In this document: positions 3,791 through 23,248 of the stretch, in pieces | Position numbering within the stretch: the stretch's first letter is position 1 | Layout: each line of letters begins with the position of its first letter | Assembly (NCBI RefSeq): GCF_005222785.1 | Contig: NZ_STGH01000001.1 | Location: 682,001 to 746,000 of the forward strand | Reading direction: 5' to 3' | Origin: Rhodobacter sp. SY28-1 | GTDB taxonomy: Bacteria > Pseudomonadota > Alphaproteobacteria > Rhodobacterales > Rhodobacteraceae | DNA: 64,000 bases | The notes under the pieces: generated by a model | Databases searched by the model: none | Told to the model about the DNA's origin: nothing | The model's input: the letters and a program-made list of their open reading frames with translations, nothing else | Program-made: the position numbers and the translations under genes

Positions 3791-3861
3791 GGGGGCTCCG
3801 TGCGGGTGGATGTCCAGAGGAAAGCCGGGAATTGGCTTCAGGGCAAGCTCTTGCTGATCGG

Positions 3862-3906: not shown

Positions 3907-3959
3907 TGATTGGCAGCGGCGGAGAGAGGCGAACCCGGATGGACGCCCGAGGGGCAGGG

Positions 3960-4136
3960 CTAATCCAGTTCGCGCGCCTCGCTGAGGAGCATCACCGGGA
4001 TGCCGTCGCGGATCGGGAAGGCGAGATGGGCGGCCTTGGAGATCAGTTCCTGGCGGTCGGCATCGTAGGTCAGGACGGCGTGGGTCACCGGACAGACCAA
4101 AGCCTCAAGCATGCGGCGGTCGGCAGGTTCGCTCAT
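3960..4136 (-). CDS. Trm112 family protein (UPF0434/YcaR-like)
   Basis: A 58-residue protein, [20 protein letters not shown]… ending in SEAREL D. It fits the small Trm112-like/YcaR fold: an N-terminal LEALVCPVT strand and a C-terminal IRDGIPVML strand. Many members bind zinc with four cysteines and activate methyltransferases; here only one cysteine is present, so a zinc site is unlikely. The ATG overlaps the stop of the Lon-domain gene (ATGA), so the two are almost certainly translated together. Confidence 0.85.
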
Positions 4137-4789: not shown

Positions 4790-4816
4790 GGATACCTAGC
4801 TAGCCCGCGAACGGGG

Positions 4817-5719
4817 TCAGGCAAATATCATCGACGACAGTTTGCGCCGTCCGGCGAGGACGATCGGGTCCTGCGGCTTCAGCGCCTCGAAGATGGTGAA
4901 GAGCTGGGCCTTGGCCGCGCCGTCGTTCCATTCGCGGTCGCGACGGAAGAGTTCGAGAAGCTGGTCGACGGCTTCCTTCGGGTTTCCGGCGGCGAGGAGT
5001 GCGGCGGCAAGGTCATAGCGGGCCTGATGGTCGTTCGGGTCCGCTTCGACGGCGGCGCGCAGTTCGGCCTCGGGTCCGGCATTGGCGGCCTGTTTGGCGA
5101 GTTCCAGCTGCGCGCGGGCGGCGTCGAGTTCCTTGGACTTGGCGACTTTGTCGGGTGCTGCCGAAATCAGCCCTTCGGCCTGGTCGAGGTTGTTCAAGGC
5201 GAGGTGCGCGCGGATCAGGCCACCGTAGGCGGCGGCGTTCTCGGGTTCCTCGCCAAGGATGGCGGCGAAGGTTTCGGCGGCGTCGACGGCGGCGCCTTCG
5301 GTCAGCATGTCCTCGGCCGCCTGGATGGCTTCGGCCAGGCCGCCGTCACCGGCCAGGGCCGAGACGCGGTCGATGAAGGCCTTGAGTTCCGAGGCCGGGA
5401 CGGCGCCCTGGAAACCGTCGACGGGCTGGCCCTGCCAGAAGGCATAGACCGTGGGGATCGACTGGATGCGGAGTTGCCCGGCGATGCGCTGGTTCTGGTC
5501 GACATCGACCTTGACCATCCTGACCTTGCCGCCTGCCGCCTTGACGGCGGCTTCCAGCATCGGGCCCAGCGTCTTGCAGGGGCCGCACCAGGTGGCCCAG
5601 AAGTCGACGATGACCGGAACCTCGCGGCTGGCCTCGATCACGTCGGCCATGAATGTGGCCTCGGTCGTGTCCTTGATCAGATCGGTTGCAGCTTGCGGCT
5701 TTTCGCCCAGACCCAGCAT
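4817..5719 (-). CDS. cnoX: Thioredoxin-TPR co-chaperone (CnoX/YbbN)
   Basis: A 300-residue cytosolic protein with an N-terminal thioredoxin domain (about 15-125) and C-terminal tetratricopeptide-like helices (about 130-290). The active site is WATWCGPCK, an intact CXXC, unlike E. coli YbbN, which has lost the first cysteine; Caulobacter CnoX keeps CXXC. The family protects substrates from over-oxidation and hands them to GroEL or DnaK. It heads the run with the Lon-domain gene, and dnaK-dnaJ are elsewhere in this window. Confidence 0.92.
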   Translation of the reverse strand: MLGLGEKPQAATDLIKDTTEATFMADVIEASREVPVIVDFWATWCGPCKTLGPMLEAAVKAAGGKVRMVKVDVDQNQRIAGQLRIQSIPTVYAFWQGQPVDGFQGAVPASELKAFIDRVSALAGDGGLAEAIQAAEDMLTEGAAVDAAETFAAILGEEPENAAAYGGLIRAHLALNNLDQAEGLISAAPDKVAKSKELDAARAQLELAKQAANAGPEAELRAAVEADPNDHQARYDLAAALLAAGNPKEAVDQLLELFRRDREWNDGAAKAQLFTIFEALKPQDPIVLAGRRKLSSMIFA

Positions 5720-5782
5720 GGCGGACTCCTGTAGACTGTTTGCCCATATATGGCGAGCGGGCGCGCAAAGGCCAAGGGGCGA

Positions 5783-6358
5783 TCAGGTGGGCGGGTTGCG
5801 CCAGTCGCAGGTGGCGAGGTGGTCGTTGACCATGCCGGCGGCCTGCATGAAGGCGTAGGTGATGGTGGGGCCGACGAAGTTGAACCCTTCAGCCTTCAGC
5901 GCCTTGGACATCGCCTGGGATTGGGTTGTCTGGCCGGGGACCTGGGCGAGCGTCTTCGGGTGGTTCACGAGGGGCTGCCCGCCGGTGAAGGACCACAGGA
6001 AGGATGAGAAGCCCTGGGTGGATTCGATCCGCAGGAAGGCCTGCGCGCCGCGGATCGTACCTTCGATCTTGCCGCGGTGGCGGACGATGCCGGGGTCCTG
6101 CAAAAGGCGGGTGACCTCGGGTTCGCCCCAGGTGGCGATGACATCGGGGTCAAAGCACTGGAAGGCCGCGCGAAAGCCGTCACGTTTGCGCAGGATGGTG
6201 ATCCAGGACAGCCCGGCCTGGAAGCTTTCGAGGATCAGAAGTTCGAACAGGCGTTTGGGGTCGCGCTCGGGGCGGCCCCATTCGTCGTCGTGGTAGGCCT
6301 GATACAGCGGATCGGTCCCGCACCAGGGGCAACGCGTCGAATTGTCGGCATTTTCCAT
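5783..6358 (-). CDS. tag: DNA-3-methyladenine glycosylase I
   Basis: A 191-residue base-excision enzyme that removes 3-methyladenine from alkylated DNA. The start at 6358 gives MENADNSTRCPWCGTDPLYQ, in line with Tag proteins of about 187 residues; the open frame upstream has no homology. YHDDEWGRP contains the conserved catalytic-region glutamate, and the N-terminal Cys plus the C-terminal NDHLATC His/Cys provide the structural zinc site. It is divergent from the EAL gene at 6475. Confidence 0.95.
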   Translation of the reverse strand: MENADNSTRCPWCGTDPLYQAYHDDEWGRPERDPKRLFELLILESFQAGLSWITILRKRDGFRAAFQCFDPDVIATWGEPEVTRLLQDPGIVRHRGKIEGTIRGAQAFLRIESTQGFSSFLWSFTGGQPLVNHPKTLAQVPGQTTQSQAMSKALKAEGFNFVGPTITYAFMQAAGMVNDHLATCDWRNPPT

Positions 6359-6408
6359 CGGCGGACTTTCGGGTTTCGGGCGGGAAGAATTAGAACAAAA
6401 TGCGAATA

Positions 6409-6437
6409 TTGACGATCCGTTTACCCGACCGTTGCTA
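6409..6437 (+). promoter_or_regulatory. Possible sigma70-type promoter of the EAL gene
   Basis: TTGACG (6409-6414) and TTGCTA (6432-6437) are separated by 17 bases, and the EAL gene ATG lies 38 bases downstream. The region is also AT-rich compared with its surroundings. The -10 is not close to consensus. Confidence 0.4.
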
Positions 6438-6474
6438 GGCTGTCGACAGGGATCTGACCGGCCGGGGGTTGCGC

Positions 6475-7329
6475 ATGAGCTATATGAAGGAACCGAAGTC
6501 GTCGAAGTTCGACCGCGACCCGGCATTGGCAAGCCCACTGAGCGCGGCGATCTCGGCGCAGGATCGCGATACGCTGGCGATGGTCGCCTCGGCGCTGAAG
6601 GACCGGCGGATGCGGTTGGCGTTCCAGCCGGTGGTCTATGCGGCGGATCCGTCGGTGATCGGGTTCTTCGAAGGCTTCATCCGGCTTCTGAACCTGCGCG
6701 ACCAGGTCATTCCGGCGCGGGATTTCATGGCGGCGGTGGAACAGCGGCAGTTGGGGCGGGACATCGACTGCGCGGCGCTGCAGCTGGGGCTCATGGCGAT
6801 GCAGCGCAATCCGCAGATCCGGGTGTCGATCAACATGTCCGCCCGGTCGGTCGGCTATCGCCCCTGGATGGAGATCCTGAACCGCGCCTTGCAGGACAAC
6901 CCGCGGCTGGGGCCGAACCTGATCCTGGAGATCAACGAGGATTCGGCGCTGCAGGTGCCGGATGTCCTGAAACCCTTCATGGCCGAGATGCGCGAGAAGG
7001 GCATCGTCTTCGCGCTGGACGATTTCGGGGCGGGGATGACGTCGCTTCAGCTTCTGGAGGAGATGGACTTCGAGATCGCCAAGATCGACGGCAGTCTGGT
7101 GAAGAACGTTGACCGGGCGAGCGCGACAAAATCGGCCGCGCGGGCGGCGATCGCCATGGCGCAGGAACTGGGCATGTATGTCGTGGCCGAGGCGGTGGAA
7201 ACCGAAGGCGAAGCGAACTGGCTGCGCGATGCCGGGGTGGGCTGCCTGCAGGGCTACCTGTTCGGCGCACCGACCGTGACCCCGGACTTCCGCGCCTTCC
7301 GGCATGGGCGGCCGAACATCGCGGTGTAA
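6475..7329 (+). CDS. EAL-domain protein (putative c-di-GMP phosphodiesterase)
   Basis: A 284-residue stand-alone EAL domain with no membrane segment or sensor domain, probably cytosolic. The signature EAL is EGF here (FFEGFIRLL), but the other catalytic positions look kept: INMSARS, LEINEDS, FALDDFGAGMTSLQ, AKIDGSL, AEAVETEGE and LQGYLFGAP. The Mg-binding Glu, Asn, Glu, Asp-Asp, Lys and Glu are therefore present, and hydrolysis of c-di-GMP to pGpG is possible. The motif change could instead mark a c-di-GMP sensor. ATG 6475 is chosen over a TTG two codons upstream. Confidence 0.88.
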   Translation: MSYMKEPKSSKFDRDPALASPLSAAISAQDRDTLAMVASALKDRRMRLAFQPVVYAADPSVIGFFEGFIRLLNLRDQVIPARDFMAAVEQRQLGRDIDCAALQLGLMAMQRNPQIRVSINMSARSVGYRPWMEILNRALQDNPRLGPNLILEINEDSALQVPDVLKPFMAEMREKGIVFALDDFGAGMTSLQLLEEMDFEIAKIDGSLVKNVDRASATKSAARAAIAMAQELGMYVVAEAVETEGEANWLRDAGVGCLQGYLFGAPTVTPDFRAFRHGRPNIAV

Positions 7330-7339
7330 GGGCGGGTGG

Positions 7340-7361
7340 CCCGTCGGTGCGGCGCGACGGG
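7340..7361 (+). terminator. Hairpin after the EAL gene
   Basis: CCCGTCG (7340-7346) pairs with CGACGGG (7355-7361) around an 8-base loop, starting 11 bases after the stop codon. No T-run follows, so this may be a weak or factor-aided terminator. Confidence 0.4.
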
Positions 7362-7605
7362 GCGGCACAATGGTGGAAGCGTGCGGCAGGGGCGCCAGGC
7401 GGTGACGAAGTGGCATGGTGGAGGGCACGCCCGGACCAGCCTGGCGTGACGTATGCTGGCCGTGTCATCGTCCCTCCATCGAAAACAGCAGAGCCGAACC
7501 ACCGGGGCGCTCGGCTGGATCGGGGTCAGTTTCAGGGGCCGGTCCACCGTCGTGCAATGACCGGGGGGCCTGCGGCACCTTGCCCAAGCCCACCATCTGT
7601 CTTGC

Positions 7606-7618
7606 ACTTGCAGCAAGT
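7606..7618. promoter_or_regulatory. Palindrome upstream of phaA, possible PhaR operator
   Basis: ACTTGCAGCAAGT is a perfect 13-base odd palindrome 78 bases before the phaA start. PhaR, the polyhydroxybutyrate-responsive repressor, binds TGC/GCA-type repeats in Paracoccus and Rhodobacter. The assignment is inference from motif type and position. Confidence 0.35.
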
Positions 7619-7695
7619 TGACCTTAGGCCATGAAGACAGCGACGGCCCTTCGGGCGCGGTGGCACAGCTTGGCGCTTAGGGAGAGGATCCGGAA

Positions 7696-8871
7696 ATGAC
7701 CAATGTCGTAATCGTGTCGGCGGGCCGCACCGCCGTGGGCAGCTTCAACGGCGCGTTCGCCAATACCCCTGCGCACGATCTGGGTGCGGCGGTGATCGAG
7801 GCGGTGGTGGCCCGTGTCGGCATCGACAAGGCCGAGGTCGAGGAGACGATCCTGGGCCAGGTGCTGACCGCCGGCCAGGGCCAGAACCCGGCCCGTCAGG
7901 CGCATATCAAGGCGGGTCTGCCGAAAGAGTCGAGCGCCTGGTCGCTGAACCAGGTTTGCGGCTCGGGCCTGCGGGCGGTGGCGCTGGGCGCCCAGCATGT
8001 GCAACTGGGCGATGCGAAGATCGTCGTTGCGGGTGGGCAGGAATCGATGTCCCTTTCCCCCCATGTTGCGCATCTGCGGGCGGGCCAGAAGATGGGCGAT
8101 CTGAACTTCATCGACTCGATGATCAAGGACGGCCTCTGGGACGCCTTCAACGGCTATCACATGGGCCAGACCGCCGAAAACGTCGCCAACCAGTGGCAGA
8201 TCAGCCGCGACATGCAGGACGAATTCGCGCTGGCCAGCCAGAACAAGGCCGAGGCCGCGCAGAAGGCGGGCAAGTTCAAGGACGAGATCGTCGGCTTCAC
8301 CGTCAAGACCCGCAAGGGCGACATCGTGGTCGATGCGGACGAATACATCCGCCACGGCGCGACCATCGAAGCGATGCAAAAGCTGCGCCCGGCCTTCACC
8401 AAGGACGGCTCGGTCACGGCGGCGAATGCGAGCGGTTTGAACGATGGCGCGGCGGCGGTCGTGCTGATGACGGCCGAGGAGGCCGCGAAGCGCGGGCTGA
8501 AGCCGCTGGCGCGGATCGCATCCTATGCGACCGCCGGGCTTGACCCGTCGATCATGGGCGTCGGCCCGATTCATGCGTCGCGCAAGGCGCTGGCCAAGGC
8601 GGGCTGGAAGGTCGGCGACCTGGACCTGGTCGAAGCAAACGAGGCGTTTGCGGCCCAGGCCTGCGCGGTGAACAAGGACATGGGCTGGGACCCGTCCATC
8701 GTGAACGTGAACGGCGGCGCGATTGCCATCGGCCACCCGATCGGGGCGAGCGGTGCGCGCATCCTGAACACGCTGCTGTTCGAGATGGGCCGTCGCGGCG
8801 CCAAGAAGGGTCTGGCAACCCTGTGCATCGGGGGCGGCATGGGTGTCGCCATGTGCCTGGAACAGGCCTGA
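7696..8871 (+). CDS. phaA: Acetyl-CoA C-acetyltransferase (beta-ketothiolase)
   Basis: A 391-residue cytosolic thiolase that condenses two acetyl-CoA to acetoacetyl-CoA, the first step of polyhydroxybutyrate synthesis (reversible in degradation). It has the acyl-enzyme cysteine in [11 protein letters not shown] (about residue 88), the NEAFAAQA and [16 protein letters not shown] His motif, and the C-terminal [13 protein letters not shown] cysteine. Its length is exactly family-typical. It is followed after a hairpin by phaB; no phaC, phaR or phasin gene is in the window. Confidence 0.97.
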
Positions 8872-8915
8872 TCCCCGCATGTCGCTGCGTCGCGGCAATT
8901 CGCCGCAATAGCGAA

Positions 8916-8942
8916 CGGGCGCGCAATAATGTTGCGCGCCCG
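8916..8942 (+). terminator. Hairpin between phaA and phaB
   Basis: CGGGCGCGCAA (8916-8926) pairs perfectly with TTGCGCGCCCG (8932-8942) around a 5-base loop, followed by a T-rich stretch (ATTTCGTTTCGG). It looks like an intrinsic terminator or attenuator, implying that phaB can be expressed separately from phaA. Confidence 0.75.
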
Positions 8943-9005
8943 ATTTCGTTTCGGTAACAGGATTTCAATGGCATACGGTAGCATACCCAAGGGAGGAGAA
9001 TCACG

Positions 9006-9731
9006 ATGGCACGGGTTGCATTGGTCACGGGCGGGTCGCGGGGCATTGGCGCGGCGATCTCGGTCGCGCTGAAGGCGGCGGGCTACACGGTCGCGGCAAA
9101 CTACGCCGGCAACGACGAGGCGGCGGCGGCCTTCACCAAGGAGACCGGCATCCCGACCTACAAGTGGTCGGTCGCGGAGTATGACGCCTGTGCGGCGGGG
9201 ATCGCGAAGGTCGAGGCGGATCTGGGTCCCGTCGAAGTGCTGGTGAACAACGCCGGGATCACACGGGATGCGATGTTCCACAAGATGACTCCGGGCCAGT
9301 GGAAAGAGGTGATCGACACCAACCTGACGGGTCTGTTCAACATGACCCATCCGCTGTGGTCCGGGATGCGCGACCGCAAGTTTGGCCGGGTGATCAACAT
9401 TTCGTCGATCAACGGCCAGAAGGGTCAGGCCGGGCAGGCGAACTATTCGGCGGCCAAGTCGGGTGACCTTGGCTTCACCAAGGCGCTGGCGCAGGAAGGT
9501 GCGCGGGCCGGGATCACGGTGAACGCGATCTGTCCGGGCTATATCGGCACGGAAATGGTGCGCGCCATCGACGAGAAGGTGCTGAACGAGCGGATCATCC
9601 CGCAGATCCCGGTCGGTCGCCTGGGCGAGCCCGACGAGATTGCACGGATCGTGGTGTTCCTGGCATCGGATGATGCAGGGTTCATCACCGGGTCCACGAT
9701 CAGCGCGAACGGCGGGCAGTTCTTCGTCTGA
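9006..9731 (+). CDS. phaB: Acetoacetyl-CoA reductase
   Basis: A 241-residue short-chain dehydrogenase that reduces acetoacetyl-CoA to (R)-3-hydroxybutyryl-CoA with NADPH, the second step of polyhydroxybutyrate synthesis. GGSRGIGAA is the nucleotide-binding motif, NNAGITRDAMF follows, and the catalytic set Ser (NISSINGQKGQAGQ), Tyr and Lys (YSAAKSG) is intact. QKGQAGQANYSAAKSG is characteristic of PhaB. A strong GGAGGAGA ribosome site precedes the ATG. Confidence 0.96.
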   Translation: MARVALVTGGSRGIGAAISVALKAAGYTVAANYAGNDEAAAAFTKETGIPTYKWSVAEYDACAAGIAKVEADLGPVEVLVNNAGITRDAMFHKMTPGQWKEVIDTNLTGLFNMTHPLWSGMRDRKFGRVINISSINGQKGQAGQANYSAAKSGDLGFTKALAQEGARAGITVNAICPGYIGTEMVRAIDEKVLNERIIPQIPVGRLGEPDEIARIVVFLASDDAGFITGSTISANGGQFFV

Positions 9732-9738
9732 CCTCTTG

Positions 9739-9783
9739 CCAGGGACGGGTGGGGGCGGCTAGCTCTACCCCTCCCGTCCCTGG
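9739..9783 (+). terminator. Terminator hairpin after phaB
   Basis: Arms 9739-9754 and 9768-9783 pair over 16 positions with one mismatch (CCAGGGACGGG against CCCGTCCCTGG at the base), with a 13-base loop. It begins 8 bases after the phaB stop. Its presence argues against the GTG at 9749 as start of the next gene. Confidence 0.7.
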
Positions 9784-9799
9784 CCTGCAGGATCATCGA

Positions 9800-10942
9800 G
9801 TGTCGGATAGCCGCGCTATTCTGGTCGCGCAACGACCGAAGCCCCGCTTTGACGTGGCTGGGGCGCTGACCCGGGCCTCTCGCGAAACCGGTCGGTCGGC
9901 GGTGAAGGTCGGCATGGACATGATCTGCCGGATGTGCGGCGCGCAGCGGCTGCGCCCGGATGAATACTTTGTTCAAGGGGCCTGGGTGGGCGACACGACC
10001 GCGCGGGCGGCCTTTGTCGGATCGTCGTCGAATTTTCGATTGAATCGGTCGCTGATCGCCAAGGGGGCGGATGACCAGACCCAGCTGATGGCGGACAAGT
10101 TTCTGTCGGGGCTGGTGTTGCAGGCCAACGGGTTCCCGGTGCCAGAGCTGAAGGCGGTCTTTGCGGCGGCCAGGATGTTCGGGCCGACACGGACATTGAT
10201 TTCGGCCGAGGAGCTGGCCGGTTGGATGGGGGAGCCGGGGCAGCTGCCCGCCTTTGCCAAGCCGGTGGACGGGACGATGGCGCTGGGCTCGATTCCTTTG
10301 GCGGCGGCGGGGCCGGGGCAGGTGGATATCGGTTCTCGCGTGGTCGAGAGGGTTGCACTGGCGGGCGAGGTGGCTCGGCTGTACCCGCGGGGCTGGCTGA
10401 TCCAGGAACAGTTGCGCCAGCCGGTCGAGATCGAGGCGTTGATCGGGCCGGGGATCGGGACGGTGCGGGTGGTGACCCTGTGGGAGGCGGGGGGGCCGCA
10501 GGTGCTGTACGCGGTCTGGCGGCATCCGGCGCCGGGGACCTGGGTGGACGCGGCGATTTTCGGCAAGCCGAACGTCGGGTGCGCGCTGGACGCCGAGGGG
10601 GTGGTGACGGACGCCCAGATGGGCGATCTGTTCACCGGGCGCGCGGTTACGCACAGTCTGGTCAACCCGGAGCTGCCGCTGGTGGGCTACCAGCTGCCGC
10701 ATTGGCCCGAGATCGTGGAGATCTGCCGCTCGGCCCACCGGCTGTTCCCGGGCCATGCGCTGATCGGCTGGGACATCGCGATCACCGGGCGCGGGCCGGT
10801 CATCAGCGAGGTGAACTCGAATCCGTTGCACATGTCCTATCAGCGGGCCTATCGGCGCGGGTTTCTGCATGCCGAGCATCGTGCCCGGCTGGACGAGGCC
10901 CGGCGTCTGTTGCAGAAGCGGTGCACGGGTAGCAAGGGCTGA
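9800..10942 (+). CDS. ATP-grasp protein, sugar-transfer-associated type
   Basis: About 380 residues. The second half has ATP-grasp features: FAKPVDGTMALGS, LIQEQLRQPVEIEAL and the metal-binding C-terminal ISEVNSNPLHMS. It resembles the ATP-grasp family found beside sugar-transfer and polysaccharide genes, whose reactions (probably carboxylate-amine ligation) are mostly uncharacterised. The N-terminal quarter contains ICRMCG. The start is uncertain: GTG 9800 is preferred because an in-frame GTG at 9749 lies inside the phaB terminator, and ATG 9914 is a further option. The exporter gene follows after 2 bases, suggesting co-expression. Confidence 0.7.
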   Translation: MSDSRAILVAQRPKPRFDVAGALTRASRETGRSAVKVGMDMICRMCGAQRLRPDEYFVQGAWVGDTTARAAFVGSSSNFRLNRSLIAKGADDQTQLMADKFLSGLVLQANGFPVPELKAVFAAARMFGPTRTLISAEELAGWMGEPGQLPAFAKPVDGTMALGSIPLAAAGPGQVDIGSRVVERVALAGEVARLYPRGWLIQEQLRQPVEIEALIGPGIGTVRVVTLWEAGGPQVLYAVWRHPAPGTWVDAAIFGKPNVGCALDAEGVVTDAQMGDLFTGRAVTHSLVNPELPLVGYQLPHWPEIVEICRSAHRLFPGHALIGWDIAITGRGPVISEVNSNPLHMSYQRAYRRGFLHAEHRARLDEARRLLQKRCTGSKG

Positions 10943-10944
10943 AG

Positions 10945-11805
10945 ATGACACGACCACGCGCGACGGCCATCGGCTTTACGGCCGTCCTGATGTGGTCCCT
11001 GCTGGCGCTGTTCACCATCGGCAGCGCGCCGGTGCCGCCGCTGCTCTTGAACGCGATCTGCTTTGGCATCGGGGGGGTGATCGGGCTGGTCTGGACCGCG
11101 CGGGCCGGGTTCGGCGTGCTGCGGGGTGTCGGCTGGAAGGTCTATGCCTTTGGCACGATTGGGCTTTTCGGCTATCACTTTCTGTATTTCACCGCGTTCC
11201 GCCTGTCGCCCACGGCGGAGACCGGGCTGATCGCCTATCTTTGGCCGCTGTTCATCGTGCTTCTGTCCGGCCTTCTGCCTGGGGAACGCTTGCGCGCGCC
11301 ACATGTGGTGGGCGCGCTGATTGCCTTTGCCGGGGCAGCGGTGATCGTGCTTGGGCGCGGGGGTGACGGCGAGGGGTCGACCCTGGGGCTGGTGCTGGCC
11401 TTTGCCTGCGCGCTGACCTGGGCGGGCTATTCGGTGCTGTCGCGGCGGTTGGGCGAGGTGCCGACCGAAAGCGTGACGGTGTTCTGCCTGGCGACGGCGG
11501 TGCTGTCGGTCGTGGCGCATCTGGCGCTGGAAGAGACGGTCTGGCCCGCGGATGCCATGGGATGGGCAGCGGTGCTGGCGCTGGGGATCGGCCCAGTTGG
11601 GGCGGCGTTCTTCACCTGGGACATCGGGATGAAGCGCGGCGATATCCAGCTTTTGGGCGTAGGAAGCTACGCATCACCCTTGCTGTCAACGCTCGCGCTG
11701 GTGCTGGCGGGGATCGCCGAGCCGAGTTGGACAATCGCCGTTGCGGCGGTGCTGATTACGGCGGGTGCGGCGCTGGCCGCCCGGGCCAGCGCCGGAAGGG
11801 ATTAG
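10945..11805 (+). CDS. EamA-family (DMT) exporter, YddG-like
   Basis: A 286-residue inner-membrane protein with ten predicted hydrophobic helices in two EamA repeats. It resembles the YddG aromatic amino-acid exporter (YHFLYFTAFRLSPTAETGLIAYLWPLFIVLL in the first repeat, WDIGMKRGDIQLLG near the end). The substrate is not proven by sequence. It begins 2 bases after the ATP-grasp gene, so the ligase product might be its cargo, but that is conjecture. It overlaps convergently by 4 bases with the YdcH-like gene. Confidence 0.85.
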   Translation: MTRPRATAIGFTAVLMWSLLALFTIGSAPVPPLLLNAICFGIGGVIGLVWTARAGFGVLRGVGWKVYAFGTIGLFGYHFLYFTAFRLSPTAETGLIAYLWPLFIVLLSGLLPGERLRAPHVVGALIAFAGAAVIVLGRGGDGEGSTLGLVLAFACALTWAGYSVLSRRLGEVPTESVTVFCLATAVLSVVAHLALEETVWPADAMGWAAVLALGIGPVGAAFFTWDIGMKRGDIQLLGVGSYASPLLSTLALVLAGIAEPSWTIAVAAVLITAGAALAARASAGRD

Positions 11806-11966
11806 TGGCTCAGCCGCTCAATTTCCTCTTTCAGGCGCAGCTTCTGCTTCTTCAGATCCGCGATCTTCAGGGCATCCGTTGCGGGGCTGCGCTGGGCCTG
11901 CTCGACCATTTCGGACAAGGTCTCGTGCTTCCTGCGCAGTTCCACCAGATGCGATGCGATCGTCAT
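11802..11966 (-). CDS. YdcH/DUF465 family small protein
   Basis: A 54-residue, highly charged, helical protein. ATG 11966 has a strong AGGAGGAC ribosome site and gives MTIASHLVELRRKHETLSE; an upstream in-frame start lacks one. Heptad-like LRRKHETLSEMVEQ and LKKQKLRLKEEIERL segments indicate an antiparallel helical hairpin. The family is widespread in proteobacteria with unknown function. Confidence 0.88.
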   Translation of the reverse strand: MTIASHLVELRRKHETLSEMVEQAQRSPATDALKIADLKKQKLRLKEEIERLSH

Positions 11967-14346: not shown

Positions 14347-15180
14347 ATGAAGTTTTTCGATTGGCTGTTTCGTCGGAAGGCCAAGGCATCGCGCGCCGCC
14401 CGGTTTGACGGCAGCGAAGCAGAGCAGATTCAGGCCACCAAGGCCGCAATCGAGTCTGTCGCCCGGGGCAATGGCCCGGCGGCGGGCCGGTTCCCCAAGC
14501 TGTCCGATGGCGCCCCGGAAGTTCTGACCCAGACTGCGAACAGCGCGGTGGTGGCCAAGGAAGGCCCGACGCCCGCTATGAACATCTGGGAGATGGAGGA
14601 AGAGCCTGCGGCGCCCGCCGCTCCGCCGATGCCGACCCCGGCGCGCGAGATCGCTGCCGATGCGGGGGCACGTCGGCGCGCGACGCGGACCAAGACCCGC
14701 GTTCTGGGGTTCGAGCCGCAACCGGCTTCGGTCGTGCCGCTGTTCGACGAAGGCCGGATGGAGGAATCGATCGAGCCGGGCGACAAGTCGGGTGTGGTGA
14801 TGTATCCGACCGGCTGGCTGGTGATCAAATCCGGCCCCGGTCGCGGCGCGGCCTTCCCGGTCATGCGTGGCGTTTCGCAGATCGGCCGCGGGTCGGACCA
14901 GACCATCGCGCTCGATTTCGGCGACATGGCGATCTCGCGGCAGCATCATGCTGCGATCGCCTATGATCCGATGTCGCACCAGTTCCACCTTGGCCATGGC
15001 GGCAAGTCGAACCTGGTGCGGTTGAATGGCAAACCCCTTCTGTCCACAAGCGTCGTCGGTGACGGCGACGAAATCCAGATCGGTGAGACGACTTTGGTGC
15101 TGAAAGTGTTGTGTAACGCTGACTTCAATTGGTCGGCAGTCGACTCCGAGGGGGATGCGGATGATATGGCGATCGCGTGA
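14347..15180 (+). CDS. FHA-domain protein
   Basis: A 277-residue cytosolic protein. Residues 1-150 are low in conserved features (basic MKFFDWLFRRKAKASRAAR start, then Ala/Pro/Glu-rich). The C-terminal part (about 155-262) is a forkhead-associated domain with GRGSDQ, SRQHHAAI, RLNGKPL and DGDEIQIG, so the phosphothreonine-binding Arg, Ser, His and Asn appear kept. ATG 14347 is preferred over ATG 14311. Its last 26 bases overlap the PP2C gene, so reader and eraser of threonine phosphorylation are translationally coupled. No Ser/Thr kinase gene is nearby. First gene of the seven-gene set. Confidence 0.88.
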   Translation: MKFFDWLFRRKAKASRAARFDGSEAEQIQATKAAIESVARGNGPAAGRFPKLSDGAPEVLTQTANSAVVAKEGPTPAMNIWEMEEEPAAPAAPPMPTPAREIAADAGARRRATRTKTRVLGFEPQPASVVPLFDEGRMEESIEPGDKSGVVMYPTGWLVIKSGPGRGAAFPVMRGVSQIGRGSDQTIALDFGDMAISRQHHAAIAYDPMSHQFHLGHGGKSNLVRLNGKPLLSTSVVGDGDEIQIGETTLVLKVLCNADFNWSAVDSEGDADDMAIA

Positions 15181-16267
15181 GCCGCGTTACGACGTAGCGT
15201 CCGGGATCAGCCAGGGCGCGCGGGATTATCAGGAAGACGCGATCACTGCGGACTTTCCGGTCGGGGCCGAAGCGGGCTTTGTGGTGCTGGCGGATGGCAT
15301 GGGTGGCCATGCTGCTGGTGACGTCGCGTCGAAGATCGTCCTGACGGAAGTCTTCAGCGAGCTGAAGTTTCATTTCGCTGATGTGCAGGCGTTCGAGGCA
15401 CGGGCCCCGGAAATCCTGCGCAATGTGGCGGATTTCGCGAACGACACCCTGCGCCAGCACACCCGCAGCCATCCCGAGACCGAGGGGATGGGCGCGACAC
15501 TGGTCGTCCCGGCTCTGGTCGAGAACCGGCTGTGGTGGATTTCGGTCGGCGATTCGCCGCTGTTCCTGTTCCGGGGCGGCAAGCTGAGCCAGCTGAACGA
15601 AGACCATTCGATGGCGCCGCAGATCGACTTCATGGTCAAGTCGGGCCTGATGGACCCGCAGGTTGCGGCCAACCATCCCGACCGCAACTGCCTGATCTCG
15701 GTGCTGATGGGCACCCGGATCCCGAAGATCGACTGCCCGACCCGGCCGTATGAGCTGCAGGCCGGCGACATCGTGCTCTGCGCCTCGGACGGGGTGCAGT
15801 TCCTGACCAACGCCCAGATCGAGAAGGTGCTGAACAGGTATCGCAAGTCCCGGTCGACCGAGATCGCCGAACGGCTGCTGGAAGAGCTTACCAAGCTGGA
15901 CGATCCCGACCAGGACAACATCAGCTTTACCCTGATCAAGGTGAACGACGCCTCGGTCCGGCCGAAGCAGGCGCGCCCGAGCGGCCCCTCGGCAGCGGTC
16001 GCGCGCCCGCGTCGTCTGACCACCGTCGCCACGCCCGAGCATCTGGGGCTGCCGATGCCGAAGCCTGCCGTCCTCGCCCCGCAACCAGCCCCGGCGGTGA
16101 CGCCGCTGCCGAAGCTTGCGGTGACGCCGATGCCTTCGCCCGAGCCGAAGGTGGGACGCACGCCGCGCCCGGTTGTCCAGGCGGTGCAAGAAAGCAACCC
16201 TGAGCCGTCGGTTGAGGATTTGTCTGCAGTCCGGTTGCGGCCAAGGCGAGTCACCGTCATAAAGTAA
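15155..16267 (+). CDS. PP2C-family Ser/Thr protein phosphatase
   Basis: A 370-residue protein. The PP2C catalytic domain spans about 1-260 with the metal-ligand motifs ARDYQEDA, LADGMGGHAAGD, GMGATLVV, VGDSPLFLF, LCASDGVQ and QDNISFTL. It is soluble. The C-terminal 110 residues are a Pro/Ala-rich basic tail (for example PKPAVLAPQPAPAVTPLPK), probably disordered. ATG 15161 is an alternative start with better spacing from GAGGGGG. It overlaps the FHA gene and sits 3 bases before the GTPase gene. The expected role is removal of Ser/Thr phosphate from partners recognised by the FHA protein. Confidence 0.92.
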   Translation: MRMIWRSREPRYDVASGISQGARDYQEDAITADFPVGAEAGFVVLADGMGGHAAGDVASKIVLTEVFSELKFHFADVQAFEARAPEILRNVADFANDTLRQHTRSHPETEGMGATLVVPALVENRLWWISVGDSPLFLFRGGKLSQLNEDHSMAPQIDFMVKSGLMDPQVAANHPDRNCLISVLMGTRIPKIDCPTRPYELQAGDIVLCASDGVQFLTNAQIEKVLNRYRKSRSTEIAERLLEELTKLDDPDQDNISFTLIKVNDASVRPKQARPSGPSAAVARPRRLTTVATPEHLGLPMPKPAVLAPQPAPAVTPLPKLAVTPMPSPEPKVGRTPRPVVQAVQESNPEPSVEDLSAVRLRPRRVTVIK

Positions 16268-16270
16268 GAT

Positions 16271-18784
<2,514 letters not shown>

Positions 18785-18917
18785 CGCCATTGTGAGCGTA
18801 GAATCGTCAAGAATGTGCCCAATTGGGACCACTTTCCAAACTTATGACATGATTGCGGGGACTTGTGTCGATTGGTGCTCGAACTAGGCGATTCAGCCCT
18901 GCAAGTGTGAGGTGAAC

Positions 18918-20981
18918 ATGGGACTCGGTGCGGTTGCAGAGAACGAGGACGCGCTGGACGGCATGGCCGCCCCGGAACCGGAAGTTGCCCTGAAGCGCAA
19001 TTTTCCCGGGCTGGGCCGCATTGCCGATTCCATCAAGCAGTTCGAGGATGTGCTGCGCGATTTCGTGACCATGGCCGACCCGGACACGGCCAAGAAGGTC
19101 ACCCGGATCATGGGCCAGGTGCGCGAGGTCGAACCCTCGGTCACCGTGATCGGCCAGATCAAGGCCGGCAAGACCTCGCTTTTGAACGCGATGATCGGCG
19201 CGCCGGGGCTGTTGCCGACGGACGTGAACCCCTGGACCTCGGTCGTCACCTCGCTGCACATCAACACGCCCTCGCCGGAAGTGAACGTGCGGGCGAAGTT
19301 CAAGTTCTTCGACAACGCGGAATGGGAAAAGCTGGTGTCGAACGGCGGCCGGATCGGCCAGCTGGCGGCGCGGGCCGGCGCGGACGAAGAGCTTGAGAAG
19401 CTGCGCCTGCAGGTCGTGCAGATGCGCGAAAAGGCGCAGGCGCGCCTGGGCCGCAAGTTCGAGATGCTTCTGGGCACCGAGCACCGCTATGGCACGGTCG
19501 ATGATTCGCTGCTGCGCCGTTATGTCTGCGTCGGCGATGAGGAGTCGGGCGGGGCAGAGGCGGGTCGGTTCACCGACATCACCAAGTCCGCCGACCTGTA
19601 TATCGACCGCGAAGACTTCCCGATCCAGATGTGCATCCGGGACACCCCCGGCGTGAACGACACGTTCATGATGCGCGAGCAGATCACGATCAACGCGGTC
19701 CGTGACAGCCGGTCCTGTATCGTCGTCCTGTCGGCCCACCAGGCGCTGACGACGATGGACATGGCGCTGATCCGCCTGATCGCGCATCGTCAGTCGCGCG
19801 AGATCATCATCTTCGTCAACCGGATCGACGAACTGCCCGACCCGGCAAGCCAGGTGCCCGAGATCCATCGCTCGATCCTGGAGACGCTGGAGAAGAACAA
19901 CGCGCCGCCGGACATCGACATCATCTACGGCTCGGCCCATTGGGCGAACGCGGTGCTGGAAGGCAAGATCGACGAGATGACCGACGACTCGACCGAGTCG
20001 GCGATCAACTGGACCCGCGCGGCCTTTGCCGACAAGATGGCCGAATGGTCGGCCGAGCAGCTGGTCTGGCATGCCTCGGGCGTCCCGGCGCTGCTGGATG
20101 CGCTGGGGCAGCGGATGTACGAAGGCCCGGTGCGTGAGGCGCTGCAGAAGTCGTCGCGCCAGGCGCTGAACCTGGCGCAGTCGCTGGACGTGGTGGACCA
20201 GGTCCGCATCCTGGAATCGGACGGGCAGCTGAACCGGACGATGACGCCGCAGCAGCTGGACGCGGAACTGCGCAAGATCGAACTGGGCGCGGTCGAAAAG
20301 CTGACGCACCTGACGAACAACGTCTGCAAGGATTTCACCAACCGCATCGACCAGAGCTATGAGCGGTTTCTGGACCGCGCGACGAACAGCCTGATCGAGC
20401 ATCTGCAGACCAATGGCGAAGACGCGACCTGGCACTACAGCCCGCTGGGGCTGCGGATGCTGCTGTCGTCCAGCTATCAGGTCGTGCTGAAGAAGATGCA
20501 TGCCATCGCGGCCGAGGTGAACAACGAGACGGCGGTCCAGATTGCCGACCTGTACGGCAGGACCTTCTCGATCACGGTCGAAGGCTTCAAGATCGAGACG
20601 CCCGTGGTGTCCTACATCCCGCCGCCGATCAACCTGGGCCAGACCATCGCGCTGGACCTGCAGGTCGGCTGGTGGAAAGGCTGGTGGCAGCGCCGCCGGG
20701 GCTACAAGGCCTTTGCGCAGGACTTCAACAAGCTGATCCGGGCCGAGACTGACCCGATCATCAACGACCTGAAGACGATCCAGATCGGCCTCTTCCGCGA
20801 ACGGACCCAGACCACCCTGCGGGACTTCCTGCAGGAACAGCGCGAGCTTCTGATGAGCGCGCTGGCAAGTTCCGAAATTTCGATGGAAGAGATGAAGGAA
20901 CTGTTCGGCGTGAACGCCTGGGAAGACCGGCAGGAGTGCCTGGCTTCGATCATGGACGAACTGGCGATTTATGCTGACTGA
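18918..20981 (+). CDS. Dynamin-like large GTPase
   Basis: A 687-residue protein. GQIKAGKTS (79-87) is the P-loop, NPWTSVVT supplies the switch I threonine, RDTPGV (242-245 DTPG) is G3 and FVNRIDEL (NRID 301-304) is G4, so all GTPase motifs are present. About 350 residues of helical stalk follow. Near 580-600, GWWKGWWQRRRGYKAF is an aromatic/basic patch that could insert into lipid, like a dynamin paddle. No true transmembrane helix is evident. Bacterial dynamin-like proteins often work in pairs, and the next gene is a second one. ATG 18918 follows AGGTGA; GTG 18912 is an alternative. Confidence 0.88.
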   Translation: MGLGAVAENEDALDGMAAPEPEVALKRNFPGLGRIADSIKQFEDVLRDFVTMADPDTAKKVTRIMGQVREVEPSVTVIGQIKAGKTSLLNAMIGAPGLLPTDVNPWTSVVTSLHINTPSPEVNVRAKFKFFDNAEWEKLVSNGGRIGQLAARAGADEELEKLRLQVVQMREKAQARLGRKFEMLLGTEHRYGTVDDSLLRRYVCVGDEESGGAEAGRFTDITKSADLYIDREDFPIQMCIRDTPGVNDTFMMREQITINAVRDSRSCIVVLSAHQALTTMDMALIRLIAHRQSREIIIFVNRIDELPDPASQVPEIHRSILETLEKNNAPPDIDIIYGSAHWANAVLEGKIDEMTDDSTESAINWTRAAFADKMAEWSAEQLVWHASGVPALLDALGQRMYEGPVREALQKSSRQALNLAQSLDVVDQVRILESDGQLNRTMTPQQLDAELRKIELGAVEKLTHLTNNVCKDFTNRIDQSYERFLDRATNSLIEHLQTNGEDATWHYSPLGLRMLLSSSYQVVLKKMHAIAAEVNNETAVQIADLYGRTFSITVEGFKIETPVVSYIPPPINLGQTIALDLQVGWWKGWWQRRRGYKAFAQDFNKLIRAETDPIINDLKTIQIGLFRERTQTTLRDFLQEQRELLMSALASSEISMEEMKELFGVNAWEDRQECLASIMDELAIYAD

Positions 20982-21012
20982 GTAGCGTAAAGGGTACGAA
21001 AGGACCTGAGGA

Positions 21013-21969
21013 ATGCCGCTGACCCGCAAACCCCGCATCGCCATCATGGGCGAATTCAGCTCGGGCAAAAGCACGCTCTGCAACGTGTTGATGGGGGCAA
21101 GACCGCTACTGGAGAAGGTGACGGCGACGCAGCTGCCGCCGGTCTGGCTGTCCTATGGCCCGGATGATGCCTACACGATGGGCCTGGACGGTCACGCCTA
21201 TGATCTGGATCTGGCCGAGCTGGAAGACGTCAGCCTTGAGACGACCGAGCATGTCCGCATCTTCATGAAAAGCGACATCCTGCGGTATTGCGACCTGATC
21301 GACATGCCCGGGATTTCCGACCCCTCGATGTCCTCGGAAGTGTGGGAGCGGATGACGCACCTGGCAGATGGCGTCTTGTGGTGTACCCATGCGACCCAGG
21401 CGTGGCGGCAGTCGGAGTCGGGCGTCTGGTCGACCTTCCCGCAGGAAATGCGGCGGAACAGCCTGCTGCTGGTCACCCGGTTCGACAAGATCGTCGGCGA
21501 GAAGGACCGCGCCAAGGTCATCAAGCGGGTCGAGCAGGAAACCGAGGATCTGTTCGCCAAGGTCTTCCCGGTCTCGCTGTTGCAGGCGATGCGCGCGGGC
21601 GGGGACGAGGAGAAGTGGATCGAAAGCGGCGCGGACGATTTCACCAAGGCGCTGTTCGAGGTCATCCACCGGATCGTCGACGAGGGTGACCCAGAGCCGG
21701 GCGATGCGGGCAAGCCTGCCATCACTCCGGACCCCGCCGAGGAAACCGAGGTCGGGCAAAGCCTGATCGCCCGGACCTTCGAGCGGCTGATGGCAATCCG
21801 CAACACGCCGGTCATCAAGATCCAGCCGCGCCGGGTCGAGGCGAAGACCGAACGGCTGCTGCGCACCGAACGGCCGACGGCCGAGTCCGGCCCCACGCTG
21901 GTGACCTTTGCAGATCATATCGTCGGGACGGGCGATGCGATGCCGCTTGGCCGTCTGAAGACGTCGTAA
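21013..21969 (+). CDS. Second, short dynamin-like GTPase
   Basis: A 318-residue protein that is nearly all GTPase domain: IMGEFSSGKST (P-loop, dynamin type GxFSSGKS, 11-21), LIDMPGISD (G3, about 96-100) and LVTRFDKIVG (G4, TRFD 155-158). It lacks the long helical stalk of its neighbour, so it may act as the nucleotide-sensing partner of a heteromeric pair. It starts 31 bases after the larger dynamin-like gene, with an AAAGGACCTGAGGA ribosome site. Its C-terminal 80 residues are basic with no recognised fold. Confidence 0.88.
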   Translation: MPLTRKPRIAIMGEFSSGKSTLCNVLMGARPLLEKVTATQLPPVWLSYGPDDAYTMGLDGHAYDLDLAELEDVSLETTEHVRIFMKSDILRYCDLIDMPGISDPSMSSEVWERMTHLADGVLWCTHATQAWRQSESGVWSTFPQEMRRNSLLLVTRFDKIVGEKDRAKVIKRVEQETEDLFAKVFPVSLLQAMRAGGDEEKWIESGADDFTKALFEVIHRIVDEGDPEPGDAGKPAITPDPAEETEVGQSLIARTFERLMAIRNTPVIKIQPRRVEAKTERLLRTERPTAESGPTLVTFADHIVGTGDAMPLGRLKTS

Positions 21970-21987
21970 CGCGGAAAGGACGAAAGG

Positions 21988-22359
21988 GTGGGTGTGGCGG
22001 AAAGCCTTGGGGCGGTTGTGAAGGCCTTTCCGCAGGCGCGGCTTGTGGCCTTTGCCGATCTGTCCTCGCGCATGATCCTGACCAGTGCCGGGCCGATGGT
22101 CACGACGCAGGAACACCTGGACCGGCTGTGCAACCAGGCCCGCACCTGCTTTGACGACCCCCTGTTCGCCCTCTCGGTTGAGGCCTTTGGCGAACCGCAT
22201 GCTGCGGTGGTGATGGGGCCGTCTGGCCTGCGCCTGTTCCTGCGGTCCGAGGCTGAGCCTGCCGACGCCCTGTGCTGCATCTGCGATCCCGGCATTGACC
22301 TTCCCGCGTTTGTGGCGAAAATCCGCGAAACGCTGGAAGGCATCACTGATGGCGGGTGA
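21988..22359 (+). CDS. Small roadblock/LC7-like protein
   Basis: A 123-residue protein, GTG start with AAAGGA upstream. The order helix (AESLGAVVKAFP), strands (RLVAFADLSSRMILTSAG), helix (EHLDRLCNQARTCF), strands (AAVVMGPSGLRLFLRSE, DALCCICD) and helix (DLPAFVAKIRETLEGI) matches the roadblock/LC7 fold used by MglB-type regulators of small GTPases. The sequence is not clearly similar, so this is inference from layout and from its position 18 bases after a GTPase gene. It could act as GTPase regulator or dimerisation platform. Confidence 0.55.
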   Translation: MGVAESLGAVVKAFPQARLVAFADLSSRMILTSAGPMVTTQEHLDRLCNQARTCFDDPLFALSVEAFGEPHAAVVMGPSGLRLFLRSEAEPADALCCICDPGIDLPAFVAKIRETLEGITDGG

Positions 22360-22390
22360 TGCGCGTGCGTGACGGGGGCCGAAGAAGCCG

Positions 22391-23248
22391 TTGAACAAGG
22401 GAAGCGTTCCAATCCTCGCCCGTCTGCGCAGTCTGCAGGCGGATGTACGGGTGCTTTCGGGCGGGTCCCGCGTCATTGCACAGCCTGATGACCGCAACCC
22501 GGTGGCGCAGGTGTTGCGGGCGGCCAACGAAACCATGCTGGCCCGGTCGCTGGAGTTTCGCTCCTCCACCGGGGCGTCGTTGACGCTGGATGTCGCGGGG
22601 CGCCGGGTGTTGCGGCTGACGTCATGCATCGGCCTGCCGGGGGCGGAATCCTGCCTTGGCGCGGAAGTGCTTGAGGATGAGCACAAGGACGACCTCATCA
22701 AGCTGTTGCAGGCCGTGGCCGCCCCCCGGCAAGAGCTTCGGGTGATTTCCGGCCCAGTCGGCCGCGGTGGCGAGGAGGTCAGCGTCGGCCTGCCGGTCGC
22801 GCTTCTGGCAGACCTGCTGCTGGTCGAACTGAACGAGACCGACGCCGACGAGCCCCTGCCCGAGGAAGCGCCTGCCGAGCCCGAGGTCTTCGAGGAGCCG
22901 TCGTTCCAGCTGTCCGGCAAGGGCATCCGCGACTTTGCCGAAGGCGTGGGCCCGACCCTGATCGCCTGGCTGGTTCGGGGGGGCGATGCGGATGGCAGCA
23001 CATTTGGCCCGGAAGAGATGGTCTCGCACCTGCAGGGGTTCCTGGACGATGAAACCGAGTCCGTGGTGCACCAGCTTGACCTGTTGTCAGCCCGGCCGGG
23101 CGATCCGATCTGCCTGATGCTGGGGGCCACGCTGATCGAGGGCCACAGCATCGTTTGTGCCCGGATGCAGGACTCTCTGCTTCTGGGCGTGATCGAGGGC
23201 GATGGCGCGCCCGCGGCCCTGGCCGCCTGGAACGCCCTTCTGCACTGA
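22391..23248 (+). CDS. Unrecognised protein of the FHA/PP2C/GTPase set
   Basis: A 285-residue soluble protein of no family I recognise. A TGA at 22370 closes the frame, so the start must be TTG 22391 or further inside. The N-terminal half (RSLQADVRVLSGG, RAANETMLARSLEF) and the C-terminal part (DETESVVHQLDLL, CLMLGATLIEGHSIVCARMQDSLLLGVI) each resemble an alternating helix-strand module, split by an acidic linker around 155-170 (ETDADEPLPEEAP). Two roadblock-like modules are possible but unproven. It is the last gene before motB on the same strand, 141 bases away. Confidence 0.7.
   Translation: MNKGSVPILARLRSLQADVRVLSGGSRVIAQPDDRNPVAQVLRAANETMLARSLEFRSSTGASLTLDVAGRRVLRLTSCIGLPGAESCLGAEVLEDEHKDDLIKLLQAVAAPRQELRVISGPVGRGGEEVSVGLPVALLADLLLVELNETDADEPLPEEAPAEPEVFEEPSFQLSGKGIRDFAEGVGPTLIAWLVRGGDADGSTFGPEEMVSHLQGFLDDETESVVHQLDLLSARPGDPICLMLGATLIEGHSIVCARMQDSLLLGVIEGDGAPAALAAWNALLH

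What the first reader, a model, noticed from the sequence alone, without database searches (positions are those of the whole stretch)
14347..23248. FHA-PP2C-GTPase-dynamin pair-roadblock-like gene set next to flagellar genes
Seven consecutive same-strand genes encode a phosphothreonine reader (FHA), a phosphothreonine eraser (PP2C, overlapping the FHA gene), three P-loop GTPases of which two are dynamin-like, a small roadblock-like protein and an unrecognised protein. Motifs are seen directly; grouping them as one system is inference. FHA plus PP2C recalls the threonine phosphorylation control of type VI secretion, but no secretion gene is present and no kinase is in the window. Dynamin-like pairs remodel membranes in other bacteria. 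A GTP- and phosphorylation-controlled membrane module with MglB-like regulation is a plausible and, to my knowledge, undescribed combination.
Basis: partly seen in the sequence, partly recalled or inferred. Interest (0 to 1): 0.9.

Follow-up and report, generated by a model that had tools for sequence, protein, structure and literature searches.

The report
Kinase-controlled bacterial dynamin operon
The seven genes belong to a conserved set, found in many bacteria of one aquatic order, that appears to put membrane-reshaping dynamin-like proteins under the control of a protein kinase, a phosphate-reading protein and a phosphatase.

Summary
In detail: seven same-strand genes at 14347-23248 encode FHA, PP2C, a degenerate GTPase, a large dynamin, a stalkless dynamin-like GTPase, a roadblock protein (by structure model) and an unnamed protein. 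In 80 relatives examined (of 442 found), the order kinase-FHA-PP2C-P3-dynamin-P5-roadblock-P7 is kept as far as contigs reach, with few exceptions; 44 of 46 loci outside the window's genus with upstream sequence start with a Ser/Thr kinase. In the window's genus (Tabrizicola) the operon lacks it, but the window's genome carries a kinase-FHA-PP2C trio elsewhere. In 390 genomes of the order, 122 of 131 roadblock hits lie 0.5-2.5 kb downstream of a dynamin hit. The FHA protein has an invariant Thr (56 of 56) ahead of a GarA/OdhI-like FHA domain, suggesting a phospho-switch. Flagellar linkage looks incidental (FlgH in 97 of 122 carriers, 227 of 268 non-carriers); TssC of type VI secretion is absent in 20 of 30 carriers tested. 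Best reading: a phosphorylation-switched inner-membrane remodelling or repair machine. My five paper searches found no description of the combination. Function is inferred, not shown.

The parts
14347..15180 (+). FHA protein (reader). N-terminus MKFFDWLFRRKA, possibly an amphipathic membrane anchor (judged by eye and by hydrophobic moment of the window protein only); variable linker; FHA domain at the C-terminus. The open frame reaches back to 14311
   Evidence: PF00498 31.4 bits, cut-off 20.7; closest solved relatives GarA/OdhI; R193, S209, H213, N234, N239 (numbering from 14311) in 56 of 56 aligned sequences
14686..14712 (+). candidate phospho-switch motif RTKTRVLGF in the FHA protein; the Thr at 14695-14697 (T129 counted from 14311) is invariant
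   Evidence: Thr in 56 of 56 aligned sequences; KTRxLGF also kept in the four trio FHA proteins looked at (L163, L166, L167, L169)
15155..16267 (+). PP2C phosphatase (eraser)
   Evidence: PF13672 38.6 bits, cut-off 24; NF033484 (Stp1) 138.7 bits, below its equivalog cut-off of 230; DGMGGH, D133, D212, D254 at 90% or more in 60 sequences
16271..18784 (+). P3: atypical GTPase, P-loop and G4 kept, G3 not; very long Pro/Glu-rich linker; conserved C-terminal domain
   Evidence: its C-terminal domain also sits on the partner of a second dynamin in Ruegeria and in G034, and on 0 of 70 P5 proteins
18912..20981 (+). DYN: large dynamin-like GTPase with a long region after the G domain and a conserved Trp-rich stretch
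   Evidence: Dynamin_N 45 bits, cut-off 27; PDB best hit 5owv chain A, E 1.6e-7 over residues 220-309; 190 columns at 90% or more in 76 sequences
20670..20687 (+). WWxxWW stretch of DYN, candidate membrane-inserting tip
   Evidence: W587, W588, W591, W592 at 90% or more in 76 sequences; role inferred
21013..21969 (+). P5: dynamin-like G domain too short for a stalk, likely partner of DYN
   Evidence: Dynamin_N 35.8 bits, cut-off 27; PDB best hit 5owv chain C over residues 3-206, E 2.1e-7
21988..22359 (+). P6: roadblock/LC7-fold protein
   Evidence: AlphaFold pLDDT 89.7; Foldseek 84 hits at E up to 0.001, top hits roadblock and MglB
22391..23248 (+). P7: unnamed protein, C-terminal half with roadblock/longin-like order of helices and strands (tentative)
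   Evidence: AlphaFold pLDDT 89.7, pTM 0.59; weak Foldseek hits

Best explanation
The cluster is the effector half plus part of the control half of an eight-gene membrane-remodelling system of Rhodobacterales. A Ser/Thr kinase (with a transmembrane-like segment in 16 of 44 operon copies, and in two plasmid loci next to LysM or solute-binding-like proteins) senses an envelope condition. It phosphorylates the invariant Thr of the KTRxLGF motif in the FHA protein, which its own or a neighbouring FHA domain then binds (a GarA/OdhI-like switch); PP2C resets it. The switched FHA protein, perhaps held at the inner membrane by its N-terminal helix, recruits or releases the dynamin machine: DYN supplies stalk and membrane contact, P5 the partner G domain for assembly-stimulated GTP hydrolysis, P3 is a GTP-binding but probably hydrolysis-deficient partner, and the roadblock protein P6, perhaps with P7, is a platform or GAP-like regulator for these G domains. 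The likely job is remodelling or repair of the inner membrane under envelope stress. In Tabrizicola the kinase acts in trans from a duplicated kinase-FHA-PP2C trio. Shown here: gene identities, order, linkage, conservation, duplicate trio. Inferred: all interactions, the switch, the sensing, the membrane role.
For: Labels follow the order K-FHA-PP2C-P3-DYN-P5-P6-P7 on one strand in 72 of 80 loci as far as contigs reach; kinase first in 44 of 46 non-Tabrizicola loci with upstream sequence. 122 of 131 P6 hits in 390 genomes sit downstream of a DYN hit. The blocks K-FHA-PP2C and DYN-P5-P6-P7 rearrange but stay together on one Leisingera and one Ruegeria plasmid. Own genome: K-FHA-PP2C trio at C2 about 921 kb. 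Kinase, phosphatase and FHA residues conserved; Thr 56 of 56; FHA closest to GarA/OdhI, where phosphorylation makes the N-terminus bind its own FHA domain (PMC2784874, passages). DYN and P5 each match a different chain of 5owv, a dynamin pair whose tetramerisation triggers GTPase activity and lipid binding (PMC6104087, passages).
Against: No interaction, phosphorylation or membrane activity was tested; no complex was modelled. The 80 loci were chosen by dynamin similarity. 36 of 80 show no kinase: 23 because the contig ends within about 0.4 kb of the first operon gene seen; 10 Tabrizicola loci and L067 truly without it; and two MAG contigs (L073, L058) with 1.2 and 3 kb of upstream sequence that lack the control half. 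G026, one of six Tabrizicola genomes examined, showed no trio at the two of three kinase places fetched. The 5owv matches are short (DYN 90 residues) and P5 is only 318 residues long. P7's fold is weakly matched. The extra periplasmic-type proteins mostly fall below Pfam cut-offs.
Confidence: 0.55

Rival explanations
1. An anti-phage defence system: kinase-phosphatase sensing of infection releases a dynamin that acts on the membrane, comparable with Eleos (LeoABC) or the prophage KKP module.
For: DYN gives a weak PADLOC LeoA hit (E 9.1e-8) and P5 LeoBC and LeoA hits (2.7e-6, 5.6e-6); copies on plasmids: 19 records, 17 of them Leisingera or Ruegeria; a kinase-phosphatase-FHA defence module is published (PMC11341870, passages); several genera in the order sample are mixed for presence (for example g31, g37, g39, g42, g44, g53, g55).
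Against: The PADLOC matches cover partial, mainly G-domain stretches (DYN 51-98 only); DYN matches none of 50,697 phage records; DYN found in 30 of 32 genomes of the window's genus; the two largest carrier genera are uniform in what searches list (22 g33 and 24 g51 carriers, no listed non-carrier), while 25 listed g36 genomes have none. The recurrent flanks looked at by their sequence starts were flagellar, mreB-type, two-component, transporter or metabolic genes; I ran no systematic search for defence genes in the flanks.
Confidence: 0.15
2. A motility or polarity module serving the flagellum, with MglB-like roadblock control.
For: MotB lies 141 bases downstream in the window and MotB follows in 10 Tabrizicola loci; the roadblock model resembles MglB.
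Against: MotB found in 10 of 21 Tabrizicola loci with room and in none of 54 other loci within the fetched sequence; FlgH in 97 of 122 carriers and 227 of 268 non-carriers, Fisher p 0.24; no MglA-type small GTPase in the set.
Confidence: 0.07
3. A threonine-phosphorylation pathway that serves the type VI secretion system, displaced from its locus.
For: Kinase and FHA control T6SS assembly elsewhere (PMC12607579, abstract; search listings); the own genome has a T6SS, and TssC is more common among the carriers tested (10 of 30) than the non-carriers (2 of 20) (genomes taken from the head of the lists, not at random).
Against: TssC is absent from 20 of 30 carriers tested; the own T6SS has a distant kinase of its own about 3.4 kb from TssC; dynamins and roadblock have no place in that pathway (recalled).
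Confidence: 0.05
4. Two independent neighbours: a phospho-signalling block and a dynamin block that are merely adjacent.
For: A 127-base gap between P3 and DYN and separate rearrangement of blocks; dynamin pairs without FHA or PP2C hits in the stretch fetched (L032); K-FHA-PP2C without dynamins in five Tabrizicola genomes.
Against: Adjacency in 44 of 44 kinase-bearing loci although flanks change, and adjacency in different orders on plasmids.
Confidence: 0.1

Closest known systems
Campylobacter jejuni Cj-DLP1/Cj-DLP2 heterotypic dynamin pair (PDB 5owv)
   Same: Adjacent genes for two different dynamin-like GTPases; DYN best matches chain A and P5 chain C, though over 90 and 204 residues only
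   Different: P5 is too short for a stalk; kinase, FHA, PP2C, a third degenerate GTPase, roadblock and P7 are added; the Campylobacter operon is said to include a beta-lactamase-like gene (PMC6104087, passages)
GarA / OdhI FHA switch with PknG and Ppp of actinobacteria
   Same: FHA domain closest in PDB; conserved Thr in the N-terminal extension; kinase and phosphatase partner; in C. glutamicum the kinase appears governed by a periplasmic binding protein (PMC9769921, search listing), as LysM/SBP-like proteins sit by the kinase in Leisingera and Ruegeria
   Different: Those act on 2-oxoglutarate metabolism; here a single Thr in KTRxLGF, a possible membrane anchor, and dynamins as neighbours
T6SS threonine phosphorylation pathway (PpkA-Fha-PppA)
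   Same: Kinase, FHA, PP2C together
   Different: Not seen beside T6SS genes; dynamin neighbours; found in genomes without TssC
MglA/MglB and other roadblock-GTPase systems
   Same: Roadblock fold of P6 next to GTPase genes
   Different: GTPases are dynamin-type, not MglA-type; no recognisable sequence similarity of P6
Eleos / LeoABC
   Same: Operon of dynamin-like GTPases; weak PADLOC hits
   Different: No kinase, FHA, PP2C or roadblock known there (recalled); matches here are partial

Membership tests
Heterotypic bacterial dynamin-like protein pair | Two adjacent genes with dynamin G domains | tested here: met
   Dynamin_N above cut-off in P0004 and P0005; pair kept in the loci
Heterotypic bacterial dynamin-like protein pair | The two match different partners of a solved pair | tested here: met
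   5owv_A for DYN (residues 220-309), 5owv_C for P5 (3-206)
Heterotypic bacterial dynamin-like protein pair | Both partners carry a helical trunk with membrane-binding tip | tested here: inconclusive
   DYN has some 340 residues after the G domain with a conserved WWxxWW, not modelled; P5 at 318 residues looks too short
Heterotypic bacterial dynamin-like protein pair | GTP-dependent membrane remodelling | not testable with these tools
   needs protein
GarA/OdhI-type FHA switch | FHA domain of that subtype | tested here: met
   all 8 PDB hits at E up to 0.01 are GarA (also listed as Rv1827 or Mb1858) or OdhI; OdhI model E 1.2e-9, 38.1 bits, far below its equivalog cut-off of 200
GarA/OdhI-type FHA switch | Phosphorylatable Thr in the N-terminal extension | tested here: inconclusive
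   one Thr invariant 56 of 56 in KTRxLGF; phosphorylation unknown; the double-Thr motif of GarA/OdhI is not the same motif (recalled)
GarA/OdhI-type FHA switch | Binds 2-oxoglutarate dehydrogenase | not tested
   -
T6SS threonine phosphorylation pathway | Linked to T6SS genes | tested here: not met
   own TssC lies about 0.36 Mb away; TssC absent in 20 of 30 carriers
MglA/MglB module | Roadblock fold | tested here: met
MglA/MglB module | MglA-type small GTPase partner | tested here: not met
   the three GTPases of the set are dynamin-type or degenerate
Eleos (LeoABC) defence | Full-length LeoA and LeoBC matches | tested here: not met
   only partial stretches
KKP defence module | PP2C followed by two kinases, in prophages | tested here: not met
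   one kinase, order K-FHA-PP2C; no phage-record hits of DYN

The most novel reading that the evidence does not exclude
This is the first bacterial dynamin machine wired to a complete eukaryote-like phospho-signalling circuit (writer, reader, eraser) and to a roadblock platform: an envelope-sensing kinase switches a membrane-anchored FHA protein that gates assembly of a three-GTPase dynamin complex. It is carried by about 30% of the sampled genomes of its order and would be a bacterial counterpart, by analogy, to the kinase- and roadblock-regulated GTPases of eukaryotic membrane traffic.
Probability: 0.4. Interest if true: 0.9.

Novelty: new variant of a known kind. Interest (0 to 1): 0.74.

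Why it matters
What switches bacterial dynamins on and off is, to my knowledge, largely open. Here the genes for a phosphorylation switch travel with the dynamins across tens of genera, with an invariant candidate phosphosite, so the question becomes testable with single-residue mutants in cultivable aquatic bacteria. It would also add roadblock proteins, and a dynamin partner reduced to little more than a G domain, to the bacterial membrane-remodelling toolkit.

Tried and rejected
Flagellar role: rejected as a general explanation. T6SS link: rejected as a general explanation, though the own genome has a T6SS. Defence: PADLOC and phage records gave little support; flanks were only read by eye. 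A second KTRxL motif in P3 as a trans ligand: 22 of 71 sequences have [KR]TR[LIVM] against a shuffle mean of 3.4 and maximum of 10, but in 17 of the 22 it includes one G-domain position specific to Tabrizicola, so dropped. P6 outside the order: 2 of 289 class genomes, both of the window's family; DYN: the 19 matches outside that family are at E 8e-6 or weaker over short stretches. Sequence search of P6 against PDB gave phospholipase A2 at E 0.028 first, taken as chance; P7 gave EspG5 at E 0.068 first, likewise. Literature: searches for dynamin with FHA, PP2C, roadblock or Rhodobacterales found nothing on this combination; the library is open-access only. I did not test the kinase's adjacency in the 390-genome sample, only in 80 of 442 relatives found. 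P3 and P5 profiles cross-match, so those slots were judged by position.
Full report
Observation. The window is G000:C1:682001-746000. Seven genes run on the + strand from 14347 to 23248 with gaps of -26, 3, 127, 31, 18 and 31 bases, MotB following after 141.

Conservation. One scan of a collection of 84,980 species genomes with the dynamin profile found 442 relatives; the best 80 were kept and examined. Those with an order-level or lower name are Rhodobacterales; a few are labelled only Pseudomonadota or Alphaproteobacteria. Profile searches over their open frames gave hits on one strand only, in the order K-FHA-PP2C-P3-DYN-P5-P6-P7. By label, 72 of 80 follow this order as far as the contig reaches; in five of the other eight the P3 and P5 profiles swap labels in the right slot, L069 has P3 and DYN in one frame, L072 a broken dynamin frame, and L110 an extra P5/DYN frame upstream and no P7 hit. 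Twenty-six of the 80 are Tabrizicola, 54 are others. Of the 54, 44 begin with a Ser/Thr kinase, 41 of these also showing FHA, PP2C, DYN, P6 and P7; 8 of the rest are cut by the contig end, one (L067, near Tabrizicola in the PP2C tree) has a polyprenyl synthase upstream instead, and one (L073, a MAG) has 1.2 kb upstream of P3 without a PP2C hit. None of the 10 Tabrizicola loci with FHA and upstream sequence has the kinase; all 10 have the polyprenyl synthase.

An independent check used the roadblock profile on 390 genomes of the order: 122 genomes and 45 of 139 genera have it; 122 of its 131 hits lie 0.5-2.5 kb downstream of a dynamin hit on the same strand. Conversely, 11 genomes with a listed dynamin have no P6. 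In the class sample, 2 of 289 genomes have P6, both in the window's family.

Where is the kinase in this genome? Relatives of the operon kinase occur at five strong places in G000, none in the window. At one, C2 about 921.1-924.9 kb, the kinase (599 aa, one transmembrane-like segment) is followed by a second FHA protein (68% over 160 aa) and a second PP2C (77%). The same trio stands in G001, G024, G007 and G016; in G026 two of its three kinase places were fetched and neither has it. Trio kinases form one clade, support 1.0. Trio PP2Cs fall among Tabrizicola operon PP2Cs (clade support 0.936; 0.999 with L067) without forming a clade of their own under midpoint rooting. The simplest reading is that the control trio was duplicated in the Tabrizicola lineage, perhaps with later gene conversion, and the operon copy lost its kinase (inference).

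Two blocks. Of 19 plasmid records with a dynamin match I opened five. On Leisingera sp. S132 plasmid unnamed5 the block DYN-P5-P6-P7 faces a reversed block kinase, two annotated substrate-binding proteins, FHA, PP2C, P3. On a Ruegeria plasmid the order is DYN-P5-P6-P7-DYN'-partner'-kinase-FHA-PP2C-two substrate-binding proteins. Two other Leisingera plasmids have the standard eight-gene order. One of the extra proteins has LysM above the Pfam cut-off; the other LysM and SBP_bac_3 matches are below it. A kinase elsewhere in G000 also has a weak LysM match two genes away. The C-terminal domain of P3 occurs on the partner of the second dynamin in Ruegeria and in G034, and on 0 of 70 P5 proteins: P3 looks like the orphaned partner of a lost second dynamin (inference).

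Residues. Kinase catalytic Lys, HRD and DFG (43 sequences), the PP2C acidic residues (60) and the P5 and DYN nucleotide motifs (70, 76) are at 90% or more (motif roles recalled). In 56 of 56 FHA proteins R193, S209, H213, N234, N239 and T129 are invariant; T129 sits in R-x-K-T-R-x-L-G-F some 30-60 residues before the FHA domain, in an otherwise variable stretch. All 8 PDB hits of the FHA protein are GarA or OdhI, one entry being Rv1827 with pThr22. In that family the phosphorylated N-terminus is bound by the protein's own FHA domain (PMC2784874, passages). DYN and P5 match two different chains of the Campylobacter pair, whose single proteins show negligible GTP hydrolysis while the tetramer hydrolyses GTP and binds lipid (PMC6104087, passages).

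Context. Recurrent flanks change by lineage: polyprenyl synthase upstream and MotB or other genes downstream in Tabrizicola; mreB about 200 bases downstream in six loci, mostly Silicimonas, with mreC and PBP2-like genes after it; response regulator and histidine kinase genes in the Seohaeicola group (names given by me from sequence starts). FlgH: 97 of 122 carriers, 227 of 268 non-carriers, p 0.24; FlgH itself was not found in G000. TssC: 10 of 30 carriers, 2 of 20 non-carriers, taken from the head of the lists. Presence is uniform in the largest genera listed (22 g33 and 24 g51 carriers, 25 g36 non-carriers) and mixed in others such as g31, g37, g39, g42, g53 and g55.

Reading. A kinase-FHA-PP2C switch that governs a three-GTPase dynamin complex with a roadblock platform at the inner membrane explains linkage, residues and variants best. 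The neighbours MotB, MreB-MreC-PBP2 and LysM proteins all concern the cell wall, which hints at envelope maintenance, but each is lineage-specific. Which G domain the roadblock serves, and what the kinase senses, is open. The nearest published kinds are heterotypic dynamin pairs and the GarA/OdhI switch; I found no paper joining them, within an open-access library.

Noticed in passing
L031 (G000:C2:265000-284900), 8373-11894: A second, degenerate dynamin locus in the window's genome: dynamin frame broken by a stop, then a small dynamin-like GTPase and a 160-aa protein with a weak Robl_LC7 match (E 0.037); possibly another roadblock beside a dynamin pair.
   Followed up: partly
L095, L100, L101, L107, L113, L116: In these loci, mostly Silicimonas, the operon sits about 200 bases upstream of an mreB-like gene on the same strand, with mreC- and PBP2-like genes after it in most.
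   Followed up: partly
L156 19529-21873; L175 15503-17915; L161 3955-5049: LysM or weak SBP_bac_3 proteins next to the system's kinase, FHA or PP2C, or near a related kinase; possible periplasmic sensors.
   Followed up: partly
window 16271-18784: P3 carries a huge Pro/Glu-rich linker in Tabrizicola (about 740-920 aa in most uncut copies) but is about 400-570 aa in most other genera.
   Followed up: no
L159 (Rhodobacter sp. CZR27 plasmid) 817-7665: Two tandem dynamin pairs with no kinase, FHA or PP2C hit in the stretch read, next to a histidine kinase and an AarF/UbiB-family gene; what lies upstream across the record's start was not seen.
   Followed up: no
L052-L054, L057, L059-L062, L068, L070: Many draft Tabrizicola contigs end inside or within about 0.4 kb of PP2C, as expected if a duplicated PP2C breaks assemblies.
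   Followed up: no
G000:C1:1059862-1064811: A T6SS (TssC) with a distant Ser/Thr kinase about 3.4 kb from it in the window's genome.
   Followed up: no
G000 whole genome: No FlgH match although MotB and further flagellar-type genes lie in or near the window; may be an assembly gap.
   Followed up: no
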